Source: Candidatus Nitronereus thalassa (GTDB lineage Bacteria; Nitrospirota; Nitrospiria; Nitrospirales; UBA8639). From it: a stretch of DNA of 64,000 bases. Positions within the stretch are counted from its first letter, which is position 1; each line of letters starts with the position of its first letter. The position numbers were made by a program, and so were the translations under genes. The notes below the pieces were generated by a model. That model was not told the origin of the DNA and searched no databases. It worked only from the letters and a program-made list of their open reading frames with translations. The stretch lies in the NCBI RefSeq assembly GCF_032191465.1, contig NZ_JAQOUE010000001.1, positions 1,426,001 to 1,490,000 on the forward strand. The letters are read 5' to 3'. Of the stretch, positions 4,787 to 34,014 are shown piece after piece.

Positions 4787-7700
4787 TTAATATTCCGCCC
4801 AACTTTTAATGTATAAATCGTCAATCGTCTTCCGGCTGAGAGCTTCGATAAACCGCTCGGCTAATTGCAAATTGGTGATAAGCGGGATGTTCATATCCAC
4901 CGCTTTACGGCGAATTTGATAATCATTGGTCAATTCGGCAGCCTGAAAATTTTTAGGGATATTAATGACCAAATCGATTTTTCCTTCGCTCATGTAGTCC
5001 AGGACATTGGGCGTTTCCCGCTCCATGGGCCAATGCAGTATTGTTACATCCATGTCATGCGATGCCAAGAATTCGGCTGTTCCCTGAGTGGCAAATAATC
5101 TCATGCCCATCTGAATCAAAAGACGAGACCATTGGAGGAACGCTGCCTTTGATTCGACCGGGCCTGTTGACAGGAGAACATTCTTTACTGGTATCCGATA
5201 GCCGACGGACAATAAGGCCTTTAAAAAAGCCTCCTCAAAATCATCCCCAAGACAACCCACTTCACCAGTAGAAGCCATTTCCACTCCTAGGGCAGGATCA
5301 GCCCCATCCAACCGCGTGAAAGAAAACTGCGGGGCTTTGACTCCAACCACTTCCAACTCCGAATGCCTCCCTTCGTGCAACGGAACGATTTCACCCATAA
5401 TGACTCGCGTCGCGCAATCAATATAATTTACCTTGGAGACCTTTGACACAAATGGAAAACTTCTCGATGCACGGAGATTACATTCGATGACCATCACTTC
5501 ATTATCTTTGGCCATAAATTGAATATTCACGGGGCCATTAATTTTCAGGGTTTCTATAATCTTTGCACTGACTTTTTTAATACGCCTGACAGTTTCCAAA
5601 TACGTGCGTTGGGCCGGAAACACCAAGGTCGCATCCCCTGAATGCACGCCGGCATTTTCAACATGTTCTGAGATCGCCGACAACACAAGCTTGCCATGAC
5701 AAGCCACCCCATCCATTTCCAATTCCTTAGCGTTTTCCACAAATTTGCTAAGGACAATGGGAAACTCTTTGGAAACTTTGGCAGACCGCGCAATAAATTT
5801 CTCGAGTTCTTCATGATTAGAGGCCACTCCCATTGCGGCCCCACTCAGGACATAAGAAGGCCGTATGAGCACAGGATAGCCAACCTTCGAGGCAAAGTTT
5901 TTTGCCTCCTCAACTCCAACCAACTCACCCCACGGCGGTTGTTTGATATGCAAATGGTCCAGCAGCTGAGAAAACTTGTGCCGATTCTCCGCCTGATCAA
6001 TAGAGACGGGTGACGTCCCCAGCACCCGAACTCCGGCTTGATCCAACGCCATCACGAGATTATTTGGCGTTTGTCCGCCCATCGACACAATCACCCCAAT
6101 TGGCGATTCCTTTCTGCAAATTTCCAACACCGCCTCTAAACTTATTTCCTCGAAATATAGGGCATCGCATTCGTTATAATCTGTACTCACCGTCTCTGGA
6201 TTGTAATTCACCATGATTGTCCGGTAATTGAGCGCGCGTAGCGTGTTAACCGTATTCACACAACACCAATCAAACTCCACCGAACTCCCAATTCGATATG
6301 AGCCAGACCCCAACACAATCACGGAATCTCGCTTTTCGACCTGCAAATCATCTTCATCCCCATGATAGGTCAAATACAGGTAATTGGATTGGGCAGGATA
6401 CTCTGCCGCCAAGGTATCGATTTGCTTCACACTGGGATGAATGCCATGACGTTCGCGGGCCTGTCGAACTTGAAATTCTTCGATGCCACAGAGCTGTCCG
6501 ATTTGACGATCGCTAAATCCAGTTTGCTTCGCACCTCTAAGCAGTTGACTGGATTCCAGGGGATGCGAATTTTCTCCCAACTGCTTCGCGATCTGAACAA
6601 TATGCTGAATTTTATAGAGGAACCACTTTTCAATATGCGTGAGTTCATGAATTCGATCGAGAGACATCCCCTGCTGCATTGCTTCCGCTACAATGAAAAT
6701 TCGTTCCGGCGTGGGTTCGCTCAATTCCAGTTCAAGGCCAGATACCTTTGAACGTTCTTTATTCCCCACTAATCCCTGAACCCCAATTTCCAACATGCGA
6801 AGTGCTTTTTGCAGAGCCTCTTCAAAAGTCCGACCGATGGCCATCACTTCGCCCACTGATTTCATTCCGGAACCGAGTTTCTTTGACACCTGGTGAAATT
6901 TTTTCAAATCCCATCGAGGCATCTTGATAACAAGATAATCCAGTGCCGGCTCAAAACACGACTTGGTCACCCCCGTCATGGAATTGGGTAAATCGGCAAG
7001 GTTGTACCCCAGTCCTAATTTCGCCGCGACATAGGCCAGCGGATACCCCGTAGCCTTCGAAGCCAAGGCTGAACTTCGCGAGAGTCTCGCATTCATTTCA
7101 ATCACGCGATAATCGCCTGAGGCTGGATCCATGGCAAACTGCACATTACATTCCCCAACAATCCCCACATGCCTCGCAATGCGAATCGAGACATTCCGCA
7201 ACCGATGATACTCTTCATTATTAAGAGTTTGGCTTGGAGCCACCACAATACTTTCACCGGTGTGAATTCCCATGGGATCCAAGTTTTCCATGTTACACAC
7301 CGTCACGCAGTTATCGTATTGGTCCCGAACCACCTCATATTCAACTTCTTTCCACCCTGTCAGATACTCTTCAATTAACACCTGACCCGTATAGGAAAAG
7401 GCCTTTACCGCTCGTTCTTTTAACTCCTCTTCCGTCTGGCATATACCGGATCCTAATCCACCCAAGGCAAACGCAATTCGCAACATGAGAGGATAGCCAA
7501 TGTTCTGTCCAATTCGTAGGGCATCCTCAACCGACTCTGCGACAGCACTTTTGGGAACATGTACGTCGATCTCACCTAATCGCTTAACAAATAATCCGCG
7601 ATCTTCAGTTTCACGAATGGTTTGTACCGTCGTTCCTAAGACTTCTACAGAAAATTCTTTCAAGACCCCCGTCTCCTCGAGGGCTAATCCACAATTCAAC

Positions 7701-30338: not shown

Positions 30339-30810
30339 GAAGGTGGGAATTAAGATATTTCGTGTCTAGTAGACGAGAAATCTGTCTGGACAATCTACCC
30401 ATTGCCGACGCACAACCGTGTCATTCCCGACATCCTTAATCGGAAAACAAGATTTTTCTTTTCTTTGCCATCCTGAACGGAGTGAAGGATCTTTTTTTTA
30501 TAACTAGAAGAACAACGCGAAAAATCTCAAACCGGCGATTAGTAAGGTTTAGAAAGGAATTCGTTCAATGGTACCTGTAAGTCCCTGGTTAAACTAACCC
30601 TGCCCGGGGACCTTCCCCGACCGCACCTACGGCTCTATTTTCCCCCCACATATTTTCACCTAGTGTTTTTTTTGGTTTTTTCGTCTATGATTCCGGGTCT
30701 TCTCGGGATCAACCAAACGACAACTCGGTCAAAACGCATGGCCTAGGAGAGGGTTCATTCGCCATAGGACTTATTAGGTTTTTATTTTTTTGTTTTAAAG
30801 GAGAGTAATC
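30339..30810. other. Intergenic region containing a dispersed-repeat-like element
   Basis: 472 bases between the RNA helicase and the FAD oxidoreductase. It holds the short repeat described at 30466-30490 and T-rich stretches at 30490-30500 and 30661-30685. No coding frame was accepted. AAAGGAG at 30798-30804 is the ribosome site of the next gene. Confidence 0.5.
30466..30492 (+). repeat. Short intergenic repeat, core CCTGAACGGAGTGAAGGAT
   Basis: The segment CATCCTGAACGGAGTGAAGG, ending in a T-run, matches a short motif that I recall as scattered in intergenic DNA of many bacteria. Allowing a one-base gap, it is a near copy of the inverted element at 32905-32932. The two copies bracket the FAD oxidoreductase gene. 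Confidence 0.5.
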
Positions 30811-32835
30811 ATGGGGCTTTTTAAGAAAAAATCCGCAGCTGAGAAACAACGTAAAGCAGAAATAAAAAAGGCCAAGAAAGATGCTCGCGCCGACAAAAAA
30901 GACGCTCGCCAAGATTCCAGGGAGGTAAAGAAAACCGCCCGCAAAGACGCAAAAGCAGAAAAAAAAGACCTACGCCAGGAAACCAAGGCCGTGAAGAAGG
31001 ATGCGCGACAAGATAAACGTGAGGGGCTAAAGGATGTTCGCCAATCCGATCTAACCGGCAAGGCCAAGCGGGATGCGAAAAAAGATGTTCGCAAGGGAAA
31101 AAAGGATACGGTTAAAGTTGCGAAACAAGAGAAGAAAGATAAGAGGCATGATATTCGGAACGAGAAAAAGGATCGTGTGCAGGATGCCAAGGTGGAGAAG
31201 AAGGAGACAATTCAGCAGATCCGCGAGAGAAAGCGTGCGATCCTCAAAAACCTACGGGTACCGAAGGCATTGGATCGAAAATGGAATAGCTACCTGAAAT
31301 TTCAGCATGTGGATGCCTTGGAAATTTACAAGCCGAATACCCTGAGTCATTTGCAAACCATCTGCCGAATTGCGACCGACAATGGGTTAAAAGTACGCGC
31401 CATCGGCTCCGGCCATTCTTTTTCTGAAATCGGCGTCACGGAGGATATTTTTGTGGAGACGAAAAATCTCAACAAAATGTTGCCGATGAACAATACCCGC
31501 AAAAATAAACTCAAAAACAATGTCCGGCGGCGGCGAATGGCAGAATTACAAGTTGGGCGCACGATCATTGAAATTTCCAAAGAGTTGGAGAAGTCCGGTG
31601 AGGCCTTGATAAATCAAGGCACCTACGATGGACAAACCTTTTGGGGCGCAGTGTCGACTTCTACGCATGGATCAGGCCTCAAGCGAGGGCCGTTCCCAGC
31701 CATGATACTCAGCCTAGTATTGGTAGGCGAGGGTGGACGGACGTACCGCATTGAACCTCGGGATGGGATTACCGAGGCGCGCAATTGGCGTGAAAACGGC
31801 ATTGATGAGCTCATTCAAAATGATGATGTGTTCAATTCAGTCATTTGTTCGTTTGGCTGTATGGGAATTGTCTATTCCGCCGTCATCTCGACTCGTGAAT
31901 TCTATTGGATGAATGAGTGGACCTATATTTCCACCTGGTCAGCCTTTAAAGAAAGTTTTTCTCGCTATTCTGACATGCGAGCCTTTGTTGAACGCTGGGA
32001 CACCATTTCACTCTTGATTGGCCCGACCAAAGCCAAATCGGGCGGCAAAGATGGCGTAAGTTTCAAGGGTGAAAACCCCATGGCCATGAACCTGCGATTG
32101 GAAACCAACGAGACCCGCACCATTGGCGGAACATTCATGGATAGTTTGACCAAGTTTTTCGAGCGAATTGGGGTCATCGACTGGATCAAGGCTCCAGCAG
32201 AAGGCCGAGGCTTTACAGTGGCGGATATCTTTCCCGGTGATGCTTGGATTGCGAAGAAAGGCGTTCGTGCTTCCGGCAAGATCGGCTGGATGGGTGAAGA
32301 GATCAAGCCTAAAGAAACACCCATAAAGCGGCGCAATAAATGCTACAAGATTTTCCCCAAAGGCGGAAAATTGTTTGGGGGCTATGGGTTGGAGGTCGCC
32401 TTTCCCATTGAACGCACCATCGAAATCATGGATCGGATTATCGAGTTGGCCGAAGAGAATAAATCCAACAAGTTATTCCACACTGCGCCGGTGGCAGTCC
32501 GTTTCGTCGCACCGACGACGGCCTATGCCTCGCCCCAATATGCAGATCCGAACGACAATGTGTCAGCATTTGACCAAGGCACGGTCATGTTCGAAGTTCT
32601 GATGGCCAAAGGGACGGAAGGCGGCATGCAAGCCTTGCAATTGATTGAGGAAGCGATGCTAGATGAGCGCGATGTCCGTGTGCATTGGGGGCTTCATTTT
32701 GATCGAATCAACAGCCGCAATACGAATTTTGAGCGGATGTATCCCAAATGGCCCCAATTCCGCGCAACGTTCCAACGATTCAATCGCCAAGGCACGTTTA
32801 AGAATGTCTTTACCGATCGAATCGGCTTGCGCTGA
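30811..32835 (+). CDS. FAD-binding (VAO/PCMH-type) oxidoreductase with lysine-rich hendecad-repeat N-terminus
   Basis: A 674-residue protein in two parts. Residues 1-151 are almost wholly Lys, Arg, Asp, Glu, Ala and Gln, arranged mostly as 11-residue units such as KKDARQDSREV, KKTARKDAKAE, KKDLRQETKAV, KKDARQDKREG, KKDKRHDIRNE and KKDRVQDAKVE. This predicts a long charged helix or coiled coil. From about residue 165 comes a PCMH FAD domain, with VRAIGSGHSFSEIG holding a possible covalent-flavin His. WGAVSTSTHGSG follows. The C-terminal half resembles sugar-lactone oxidases (gulono/arabinono-lactone type). A strong ribosome site precedes the ATG. The substrate is unknown. Lactone or sugar oxidation is a family-level guess. 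Confidence 0.82.
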   Translation: MGLFKKKSAAEKQRKAEIKKAKKDARADKKDARQDSREVKKTARKDAKAEKKDLRQETKAVKKDARQDKREGLKDVRQSDLTGKAKRDAKKDVRKGKKDTVKVAKQEKKDKRHDIRNEKKDRVQDAKVEKKETIQQIRERKRAILKNLRVPKALDRKWNSYLKFQHVDALEIYKPNTLSHLQTICRIATDNGLKVRAIGSGHSFSEIGVTEDIFVETKNLNKMLPMNNTRKNKLKNNVRRRRMAELQVGRTIIEISKELEKSGEALINQGTYDGQTFWGAVSTSTHGSGLKRGPFPAMILSLVLVGEGGRTYRIEPRDGITEARNWRENGIDELIQNDDVFNSVICSFGCMGIVYSAVISTREFYWMNEWTYISTWSAFKESFSRYSDMRAFVERWDTISLLIGPTKAKSGGKDGVSFKGENPMAMNLRLETNETRTIGGTFMDSLTKFFERIGVIDWIKAPAEGRGFTVADIFPGDAWIAKKGVRASGKIGWMGEEIKPKETPIKRRNKCYKIFPKGGKLFGGYGLEVAFPIERTIEIMDRIIELAEENKSNKLFHTAPVAVRFVAPTTAYASPQYADPNDNVSAFDQGTVMFEVLMAKGTEGGMQALQLIEEAMLDERDVRVHWGLHFDRINSRNTNFERMYPKWPQFRATFQRFNRQGTFKNVFTDRIGLR

Positions 32836-33138: not shown

Positions 33139-34014
33139 TTAGGAGTGCAATGGGTACGCCTGCCACTTTGAATTGTCGTGACAGCAAATCGTCCAAATTT
33201 CATTTATATGTTTTAAGTATCCCAGGGGAAGTGGGTTTCGTGCCTTTGGATTGTGGATAATCATTGATCCAGCCAATAAGTCAAAGGCCAGTGAGAAAAA
33301 TGAGCAGTCGGAATACAACACCGCTGAGATTAAACTATTCTCCCCAGATAAAAAAAACCTTGTATCAATTTCCTCCCCACTGGCTTTCGGAATACTCTCA
33401 CAATACCTAATGCCCTCATTGGCATCAGAGGTACCAGGACCAAATATCACATAAGGGGCTCCCAAACCGTGAGTGGCTCTCATAATTGCCGGTGGACTTA
33501 AACAAGCTCTCGGACTAAGCTTCGATGAGCTAATAGCAATTACACAAATGTCGCTTCTCGATATAATTCCGCATTTGAGATATTCCTTATATTTTTTCTT
33601 TTTTTCATCGAGGGCACTACAAATACGTAAAACAATCTGATCGACCGGGACTCTCTCAGCTACCGAAGCGCCATACTTTATCGGCGAAACTGAATTGGGG
33701 TTACCTTCTTCTCCTGGTCCTGGACAAATAGCCTCTACAAATATCTTTTTACCATCTTTCTCCATGACAAAGTCTGGCCCATGTTCAGTGCTCGTTGGTT
33801 TATACTTTTCACTCTTCAAGATCTTCGCGACCATCATCTCCCATAGTCGTGCTAATGGATCTTGGTCAAGTTGGCTTTCAAAATGGGAATCTTCTAACCC
33901 GTCAAAACAACAAAAAAGATCAATTATTCTTTCACGAAGACAAAAAATGCCTGAATCCTCTGGAAGGGTTTTAAGAAATTTGCTCTTCGGATATTTTTCA
34001 AAAATGTTCATCAT
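33139..34014 (-). CDS. Orphan protein with possible PD-(D/E)XK-like nuclease motif
   Basis: A 291-residue soluble protein I do not assign to a named family. HGPDFVMEKDGKKIFVEAI (about 78-96) resembles the PD-(D/E)XK core: an Asp after a turn, then Glu in a beta strand. The final Lys is replaced (VEAI rather than VExK), so nuclease activity is doubtful. An upstream helix (ARLWEMMVAKILKS) fits the fold. Cysteines are scattered. It has no partner gene, stands next to the repeat-flanked oxidoreductase, and looks like an accessory gene. An ATG one codon later (34011) has a better spaced AAGG. Confidence 0.6.
   Translation of the reverse strand: MMNIFEKYPKSKFLKTLPEDSGIFCLRERIIDLFCCFDGLEDSHFESQLDQDPLARLWEMMVAKILKSEKYKPTSTEHGPDFVMEKDGKKIFVEAICPGPGEEGNPNSVSPIKYGASVAERVPVDQIVLRICSALDEKKKKYKEYLKCGIISRSDICVIAISSSKLSPRACLSPPAIMRATHGLGAPYVIFGPGTSDANEGIRYCESIPKASGEEIDTRFFLSGENSLISAVLYSDCSFFSLAFDLLAGSMIIHNPKARNPLPLGYLKHINEIWTICCHDNSKWQAYPLHS

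What the first reader, a model, noticed from the sequence alone, without database searches (positions are those of the whole stretch)
30811..31263. LEA-like 11-residue repeat tail on an FAD oxidoreductase
Residues 1-151 of the FAD oxidoreductase parse into about a dozen near-perfect 11-residue units beginning KK, with two short interruptions. Units include KKDARQDSREV, KKDLRQETKAV, KKDARQDKREG, KKDKRHDIRNE and KKETIQQIRER. Hendecads of this sort build right-handed or straight coiled coils and occur in desiccation-linked LEA proteins. A catalytic VAO-type domain follows directly. I know of no such fusion, though I cannot search. It could bind nucleic acid or polyphosphate, or act as a tether or stability element.
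Basis: partly seen in the sequence, partly recalled or inferred. Interest (0 to 1): 0.68.

Follow-up and report, generated by a model that had tools for sequence, protein, structure and literature searches.

The report
Charged helical hairpin on a flavoenzyme
A rare bacterial flavin enzyme carries a 150-residue, highly charged front end built from 11-residue repeats, predicted to fold into a stiff two-helix hairpin with one basic and one acidic face; a distant bacterium has the same front end at the same length, so it is under selection and probably docks or assembles the enzyme, but its function is untested.

Summary
Residues 1-151 of ORF 30811-32835 (+) show 11-residue periodicity far above shuffles (lag-11 z = 7.6-7.8, 0 of 5000), and the repeat is old at DNA level. 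The LEA label does not hold: no LEA_4 match, poor fit to the group 3 LEA consensus, basic rather than apolar residues dominate. The tail is not drifting filler. A Sphingomonadales ortholog (L010; 66% identical overall) has the same 151 residues without a gap, 64% identical (catalytic core 67%), with amino-acid-changing sites held back (pN 0.26 against pS 0.91). AlphaFold predicts helices 9-77 and 83-149 joined by a conserved QSDL(T/K)GK turn (pLDDT 93.5), superposing on straight antiparallel bundles. Each helix carries apolar, basic and acidic stripes in the same order, so a hairpin would have one basic and one acidic long face. The catalytic part is a VAO/aldonolactone-oxidase fold that keeps the flavin His but lacks the active-site Glu and Lys of alditol oxidases. 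The fusion was seen in three genomes only. Best reading: a rigid electrostatic arm that docks the enzyme on a polyanionic surface or on copies of itself. That function is inferred, not shown.

The parts
30800..30803 (+). GGAG ribosome-binding site, 7 bases before ATG
   Evidence: sequence read
30811..32835 (+). whole gene, 674 aa: N-terminal charged hendecad arm plus FAD oxidoreductase
   Evidence: ortholog L010 aligned over full length, 66% identity
30811..30846 (+). residues 1-12 MGLFKKKSAAEK: identical in L010, 11 of 12 in L011
30835..31041 (+). helix 1 of the arm (residues 9-77); hendecad block 1 is about residues 18-79
   Evidence: AlphaFold; periodicity
31042..31056 (+). turn of the hairpin (residues 78-82, QSDLT), conserved as QSDL(T/K)GK in L010
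31057..31257 (+). helix 2 of the arm (residues 83-149; 83-145 in the full-length model); hendecad block 2 is about residues 86-145
31327..31752 (+). FAD_binding_4 (PF01565), residues 173-314
   Evidence: E 8e-14
31414..31416 (+). His202 of GSGHSF, expected histidyl-FAD link
   Evidence: alignment with alditol oxidase; the linkage is inferred
32338..32820 (+). ALO C-terminal domain (PF04030), residues 510-670
   Evidence: E 3e-9
32494..32502 (+). A562-V-R564, in place of Glu-x-Arg of alditol and aldonolactone oxidoreductases
32683..32694 (+). H625-W-G-L628, in place of HWGK/HWAK (Lys replaced)

Best explanation
The first 150 residues form a rigid antiparallel helical hairpin about 10 nm long, standing on the N-terminus of a VAO-fold flavoenzyme that is probably cytoplasmic. 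Eleven-residue repeats keep its stripes straight, so one long face of the hairpin is basic and the opposite face acidic. The arm works as an electrostatic docking element: its basic face (tail net charge +31) holds the enzyme on a polyanionic partner such as nucleic acid, anionic membrane or polyphosphate, while the acidic face keeps the hairpin soluble or contacts a neighbouring basic face. Shown here: the repeat, gapless conservation, purifying selection and charge-stripe order. Predicted: the hairpin. Inferred: docking and the nature of the partner. Confidence in a real, selected, hairpin-type domain is about 0.8; the docking function is what lowers the figure given.
For: Periodicity z 7.6-8.5 in two orthologs. 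151 aligned residues with no gap, 64% identity, against 67% for the core. Codon-position changes 0.25/0.25/0.70; pN 0.26, pS 0.91; between the two sphingomonad copies dN/dS 0.16. 52 of 59 basic and 24 of 28 acidic residues keep their charge in L010, against 10 of 25 polar ones keeping their class. AlphaFold pLDDT 93.5, pTM 0.73 for the tail alone; the same two helices appear in the full-length model. The model superposes on residues 9-150 of the designed three-helix bundle 4tql (142 residues, 2.4 A) and on the antifreeze protein 4ke2 (151 residues, 3.2 A). Basic stripe at +71 to +126 degrees and acidic at -69 to -133 degrees from the apolar stripe in both helices of both orthologs. No signal peptide or membrane segment is evident on reading the N-terminal sequence.
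Against: No partner, localisation or assembly was or could be tested. Acidic residues are conserved as well as basic ones, which suits self-association as much as polyanion binding. The apolar stripe is weak (mostly Ala, Val, Thr), so the hairpin could be loose in solution. The tail alignment given to AlphaFold held only three sequences, two of them nearly identical, and AlphaFold tends to draw charged repeats as helices. Helical bundles give Z near 10 without kinship (note). The neighbouring genes give no functional hint and are not shared.
Confidence: 0.42

Rival explanations
1. The hairpin is an oligomerisation module: hairpins from two or more enzymes pack into a four-helix bundle, or stack basic face on acidic face, giving dimers, clusters or filaments of the flavoenzyme.
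For: Both charged faces are equally conserved and lie on opposite sides; exact length conservation; the 11-residue-repeat protein 4ke2 superposes over all 151 residues and is, from general knowledge, a four-helix dimer; the turn region 72-97 is better conserved (72% against 52-59% in neighbouring helix parts).
Against: The large net positive charge would repel like copies unless screened; the apolar stripe is weak; no multimer was modelled.
Confidence: 0.3
2. LEA-like protective tail: largely disordered in water, becomes helical on drying or stress and shields the enzyme or others.
For: 11-residue repeats, hydrophilic and lysine-rich; bacterial group 3 LEA proteins exist (DosH of Deinococcus, PMC10295645); block 2 fits the LEA consensus better than shuffles.
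Against: No PF02987 match in the tail even at E 10 and none in this genome; 43-58% fit to the LEA consensus against 100% for a control, with K/R where the consensus wants apolar residues; a conserved turn and fixed length suggest a defined fold.
Confidence: 0.1
3. Single stable alpha-helix (SAH) spacer, with the two helices in line rather than folded back.
For: Very high K/R/D/E content; SAH domains act as rigid connectors and springs (PMC5812594).
Against: Opposite-charge pairs at i,i+4 are depleted (8 against 21 expected, z -3.9) and like-charge pairs enriched, the reverse of SAH logic; a turn with Gly is conserved; the model superposes on folded-back bundles.
Confidence: 0.08
4. A passive solubility or low-complexity linker kept by composition alone.
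For: K/D/R/A helices of similar make-up occur in unrelated bacterial proteins (L008, L099, L100).
Against: Gapless 151-residue conservation, 12 of 12 identical N-terminal residues in L010, a conserved turn and conserved phase shift are more than composition requires.
Confidence: 0.08

Closest known systems
Alditol oxidase / L-galactono-1,4-lactone dehydrogenase branch of the VAO/PCMH flavoprotein family (2vfr, 8ot8, 8qmy)
   Same: Fold over residues 155-674 (Z 36-39, 383-427 residues aligned, rmsd 2.4-3.4 A); GSGHSF His202 at the flavin-linking position; PF01565 + PF04030 above cut-offs.
   Different: Only 17-21% identity; Glu of E-x-R and Lys of HWGK/HWAK replaced by Ala562 and Leu628, residues that line the substrate site in alditol oxidase (PMC10771423); below the cut-offs of all four NCBIfam aldonolactone-type models matched (TIGR01676-TIGR01679); extra N-terminal arm.
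Group 3 LEA proteins (LEA_4, PF02987), e.g. Deinococcus DosH
   Same: 11-residue repeat, hydrophilic, lysine-rich, helical.
   Different: No profile match; basic residues in many positions where LEA repeats are apolar; conserved turn; fused to an enzyme.
Straight antiparallel helical hairpins and bundles (designed bundle 4tql; winter flounder antifreeze protein 4ke2)
   Same: Predicted backbone geometry; 4ke2 also has 11-residue repeats (general knowledge).
   Different: 4ke2 is Ala-rich and binds ice; 11-16% sequence identity, no homology claimed.
Helical-hairpin arms on enzymes, such as the N-terminal tRNA-binding arm of seryl-tRNA synthetase (from memory, not tested)
   Same: Would work in a similar way: a long charged hairpin on the N-terminus that grips a polyanion.
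   Different: No sequence or structural match to it was sought or shown here.

Membership tests
VAO/PCMH flavoproteins (FAD_binding_4 + ALO) | FAD_binding_4 and ALO domains above Pfam cut-off | tested here: met
   51.9 and 37.2 bits against 26.4 and 23.1
VAO/PCMH flavoproteins (FAD_binding_4 + ALO) | fold of the family | tested here: met
   Z 36-39 to 8qmy, 8ot8 and 2vfr over residues 155-674
Alditol / aldonolactone oxidase | active-site Glu-x-Arg and HWxK Lys | tested here: not met
   Ala562-Val-Arg564 and HWGL625-628 in alignments; L010 has AIR and HWGL
Alditol / aldonolactone oxidase | score above the NCBIfam cut-offs (TIGR01676-TIGR01679) | tested here: not met
   best 103 bits against cut-off 292
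Alditol / aldonolactone oxidase | oxidation of alditols or aldonolactones | not testable with these tools
   needs enzyme assay
Group 3 LEA (PF02987) | profile match | tested here: not met
   none for the tail at E up to 10; none in the genome at E 0.001
Group 3 LEA (PF02987) | 11-mer consensus with apolar positions 1, 2, 5, 9 (PMC10295645) | tested here: not met
   43-58% of positions fit, many K/R in apolar positions; block 2 nevertheless exceeds shuffles
Group 3 LEA (PF02987) | disorder in water, helix on drying; desiccation role | not testable with these tools
   needs CD and survival tests
Hendecad helical repeat | 11-residue periodicity above shuffles | tested here: met
   z 7.6-8.5; charge peak at 3.64-3.67 residues per turn in each block
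Hendecad helical repeat | continuous apolar a/d/h core of a coiled coil | tested here: inconclusive
   apolar moment weak (0.05-0.11); 3/8 spacing of apolar sites mainly in helix 2; hydrophobic periodicity clear only in window block 1
Single alpha-helix (SAH) domain | enrichment of i,i+4 opposite-charge pairs | tested here: not met
   8 against 21.4 expected, z -3.9

The most novel reading that the evidence does not exclude
A two-faced (basic/acidic) hendecad hairpin is a portable module that makes a flavoenzyme assemble into salt-sensitive stacks or filaments, or coats it onto nucleic acid or polyphosphate, a regulatory arrangement not described for VAO-type enzymes as far as I could search; the enzyme also has an altered active site and so perhaps a new substrate.
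Probability: 0.2. Interest if true: 0.65.

Novelty: new variant of a known kind. Interest (0 to 1): 0.45.

Why it matters
Highly charged repeats are often dismissed as low-complexity filler. Here such a stretch is about as conserved as the enzyme it is attached to, keeps its length to the residue between two phyla, and has a definite predicted fold. If it docks or assembles the enzyme, it is a simple, designable electrostatic arm. The catalytic part is also a candidate for new flavin chemistry, since two substrate-binding residues of its nearest characterised relatives are replaced.

Tried and rejected
LEA family membership. Classical SAH. Recent tandem duplication. Tail as a shared module elsewhere in this genome (none), in 396 Nitrospirota genomes (two weak composition-type hits) or in 398 genomes of the sphingomonad order (two weak hits to exported proteins of another make-up). 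Viral or phage origin: viral-contig scans gave nothing, the phage collection one weak core-domain hit, PHROGs one chance-level hit. The plasmid collection gave only remote core matches. The first genome-contig scan, with poor patterns, found nothing. Solved structures by tail sequence: none. Viral fold library for the tail: nothing at E 0.001. Operon context: no shared neighbours between the window and L010/L011. Literature searches for such a fusion found none; only open-licence papers were searched.

Full report
What is there. The ORF at 30811-32835 (+) encodes 674 residues behind a good ribosome-binding site. Residues 173-314 and 510-670 match FAD_binding_4 and ALO above the Pfam cut-offs. 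Residues 1-151 contain 41 Lys, 18 Arg, 17 Asp and 11 Glu (net +31) and match no Pfam family even at E 10.

The repeat is real. Identity at lag 11 is 45 against 17.5 expected (0 of 5000 shuffles), and lags 22 and 33 stand out too. Anchoring on KK gives units at 29, 40, 51, 62 and again at 97, 108, 119, 130, 141, with a phase shift of two residues between the sets. It is charge more than hydrophobicity that repeats: the charge signal peaks at 3.64-3.67 residues per turn in each block (0 of 500 shuffles), while the hydrophobic signal passes shuffles clearly only in window block 1. Units are diverged (about 32% identity), no tandem repeat is visible in the DNA, and codon sharing between units is not above chance.

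It is conserved. Searches of this genome, its genus (3 genomes) and 396 Nitrospirota genomes found no second copy. An alignment-based scan of genome contigs found two close relatives, both Sphingomonadales metagenome-assembled genomes, L010 and L011, and both carry the tail. Only these two of 32 genomes of their genus, and one of 398 sampled from their order, have it. The tail of L010 aligns with no gap over 151 residues at 64% identity, against 67% for the core. Changes fall on third codon positions (0.25, 0.25, 0.70); pN is 0.26 with pS 0.91 (saturated); the two sphingomonad tails differ with dN/dS 0.16 (core 0.04). Basic and acidic residues keep their charge (52 of 59 and 24 of 28), while only 10 of 25 polar ones keep their class. 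The first 12 residues are identical in L010, and the turn region 72-97 is 72% identical against 52-59% in the adjoining helix parts. Of the 80 relatives the scan returned, the N-termini of 30, the best-matching ones included, were inspected and showed no similar tail outside L010 and L011; some have short extensions, and L031-L033 have long N-terminal repeat domains. In a tree of 28 cores the window and L010 pair with full support on a long stem. The scattered distribution and unrelated neighbours fit horizontal transfer (inference).

Predicted shape. AlphaFold gives helices 9-77 and 83-145 in the full-length model and 9-77 and 83-149 for the tail alone, the latter at mean pLDDT 93.5 and pTM 0.73. 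The tail model superposes on residues 9-150 of the designed three-helix bundle 4tql (142 residues, 2.4 A) and on 4ke2 (151 residues, 3.2 A), so the two helices are most likely folded back and nearly straight in the model. The Z-scores, 9.8, lie in the range common for helical bundles, so this speaks for shape, not kinship. Coordinates could not be inspected directly. Stripe angles were computed from sequence at 3.67 residues per turn: the basic stripe lies at +71 to +126 degrees and the acidic at -69 to -133 degrees from the apolar stripe in all four helices. In an antiparallel pair with apolar stripes facing each other, equal order places both basic stripes on one side and both acidic on the other (geometric inference). 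At 1.5 A per residue, about 65 residues make an arm of about 10 nm.

What the enzyme is. The core has the fold of L-galactono-1,4-lactone dehydrogenase and alditol oxidase (Z 36-39) at 17-21% identity. His202 sits where these enzymes bind FAD covalently, but Glu of E-x-R is Ala562 and Lys of HWxK is Leu628, and L010 has the same two replacements. In alditol oxidase the Glu, Arg and Lys belong to the active site and the Lys is called catalytic (PMC10771423). It scores far below the NCBIfam cut-offs. So it belongs to the VAO family by fold and domains, but naming it an alditol or lactone oxidase is not justified.

Mechanism. Most likely the arm is an electrostatic docking element; its closest rival is an assembly module. 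The excess of positive charge favours a polyanionic partner; equal conservation of both faces and strict length favour ordered packing with itself. LEA-type protection, a SAH spacer and passive filler each fail one or more tests. In L010 and L011 the gene lies about 170 bases behind, and on the same strand as, a gene for an Rrf2-family regulator (Pfam for the L010 copy), a family that often senses iron-sulfur or redox state (general knowledge); the window copy has no such neighbour.

Limits. Three tail sequences only; two are near-identical, and L011 lacks about 317 bases just after the tail, really or through assembly. Metagenome collections could not be scanned. No biochemical evidence exists here.

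Noticed in passing
window 33139-34014 (-): 291-aa protein with no Pfam or NCBIfam match but significant PADLOC matches to PD-T7-5 and PD-T7-1 (E 2e-14, 3e-14), candidate anti-phage proteins.
   Followed up: partly
L031, L032, L033: Relatives of the flavoenzyme core fused to long N-terminal repeat domains (L033, a Nitrospira, also has C-terminal FG-GAP repeats), so this enzyme family takes on different accessory domains.
   Followed up: partly
alignment A3, L012-L030: A broad, mostly Bacteroidota/Ignavibacteria set of ALO-type proteins lacks the Glu of E-x-R, and several also have HWGQ or HWGL for HWGK: possibly a subfamily with another substrate.
   Followed up: partly
L011 around 5999-6003: About 317 bases missing just after the tail compared with L010, with a few bases of overlap at the joint; the gene is out of frame in this metagenome-assembled contig.
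   Followed up: partly
L008 1282-1833 (+): Nitrospirota exported-looking protein with Cys-rich charged repeats (CKKDARSDKKDCKQDC and similar), unrelated to the enzyme.
   Followed up: no
L099, L100: Sphingomonad exported-looking proteins with REANREYRNEVRDARQDYRRDVRDA-type charged helices and a glycine-rich C-terminus; similar composition to the tail, no shared register shown.
   Followed up: no
window 30339-30810: 470-base gap between a DEAD-box RNA helicase gene and the flavoenzyme gene; no such helicase neighbour in L010 or L011.
   Followed up: no
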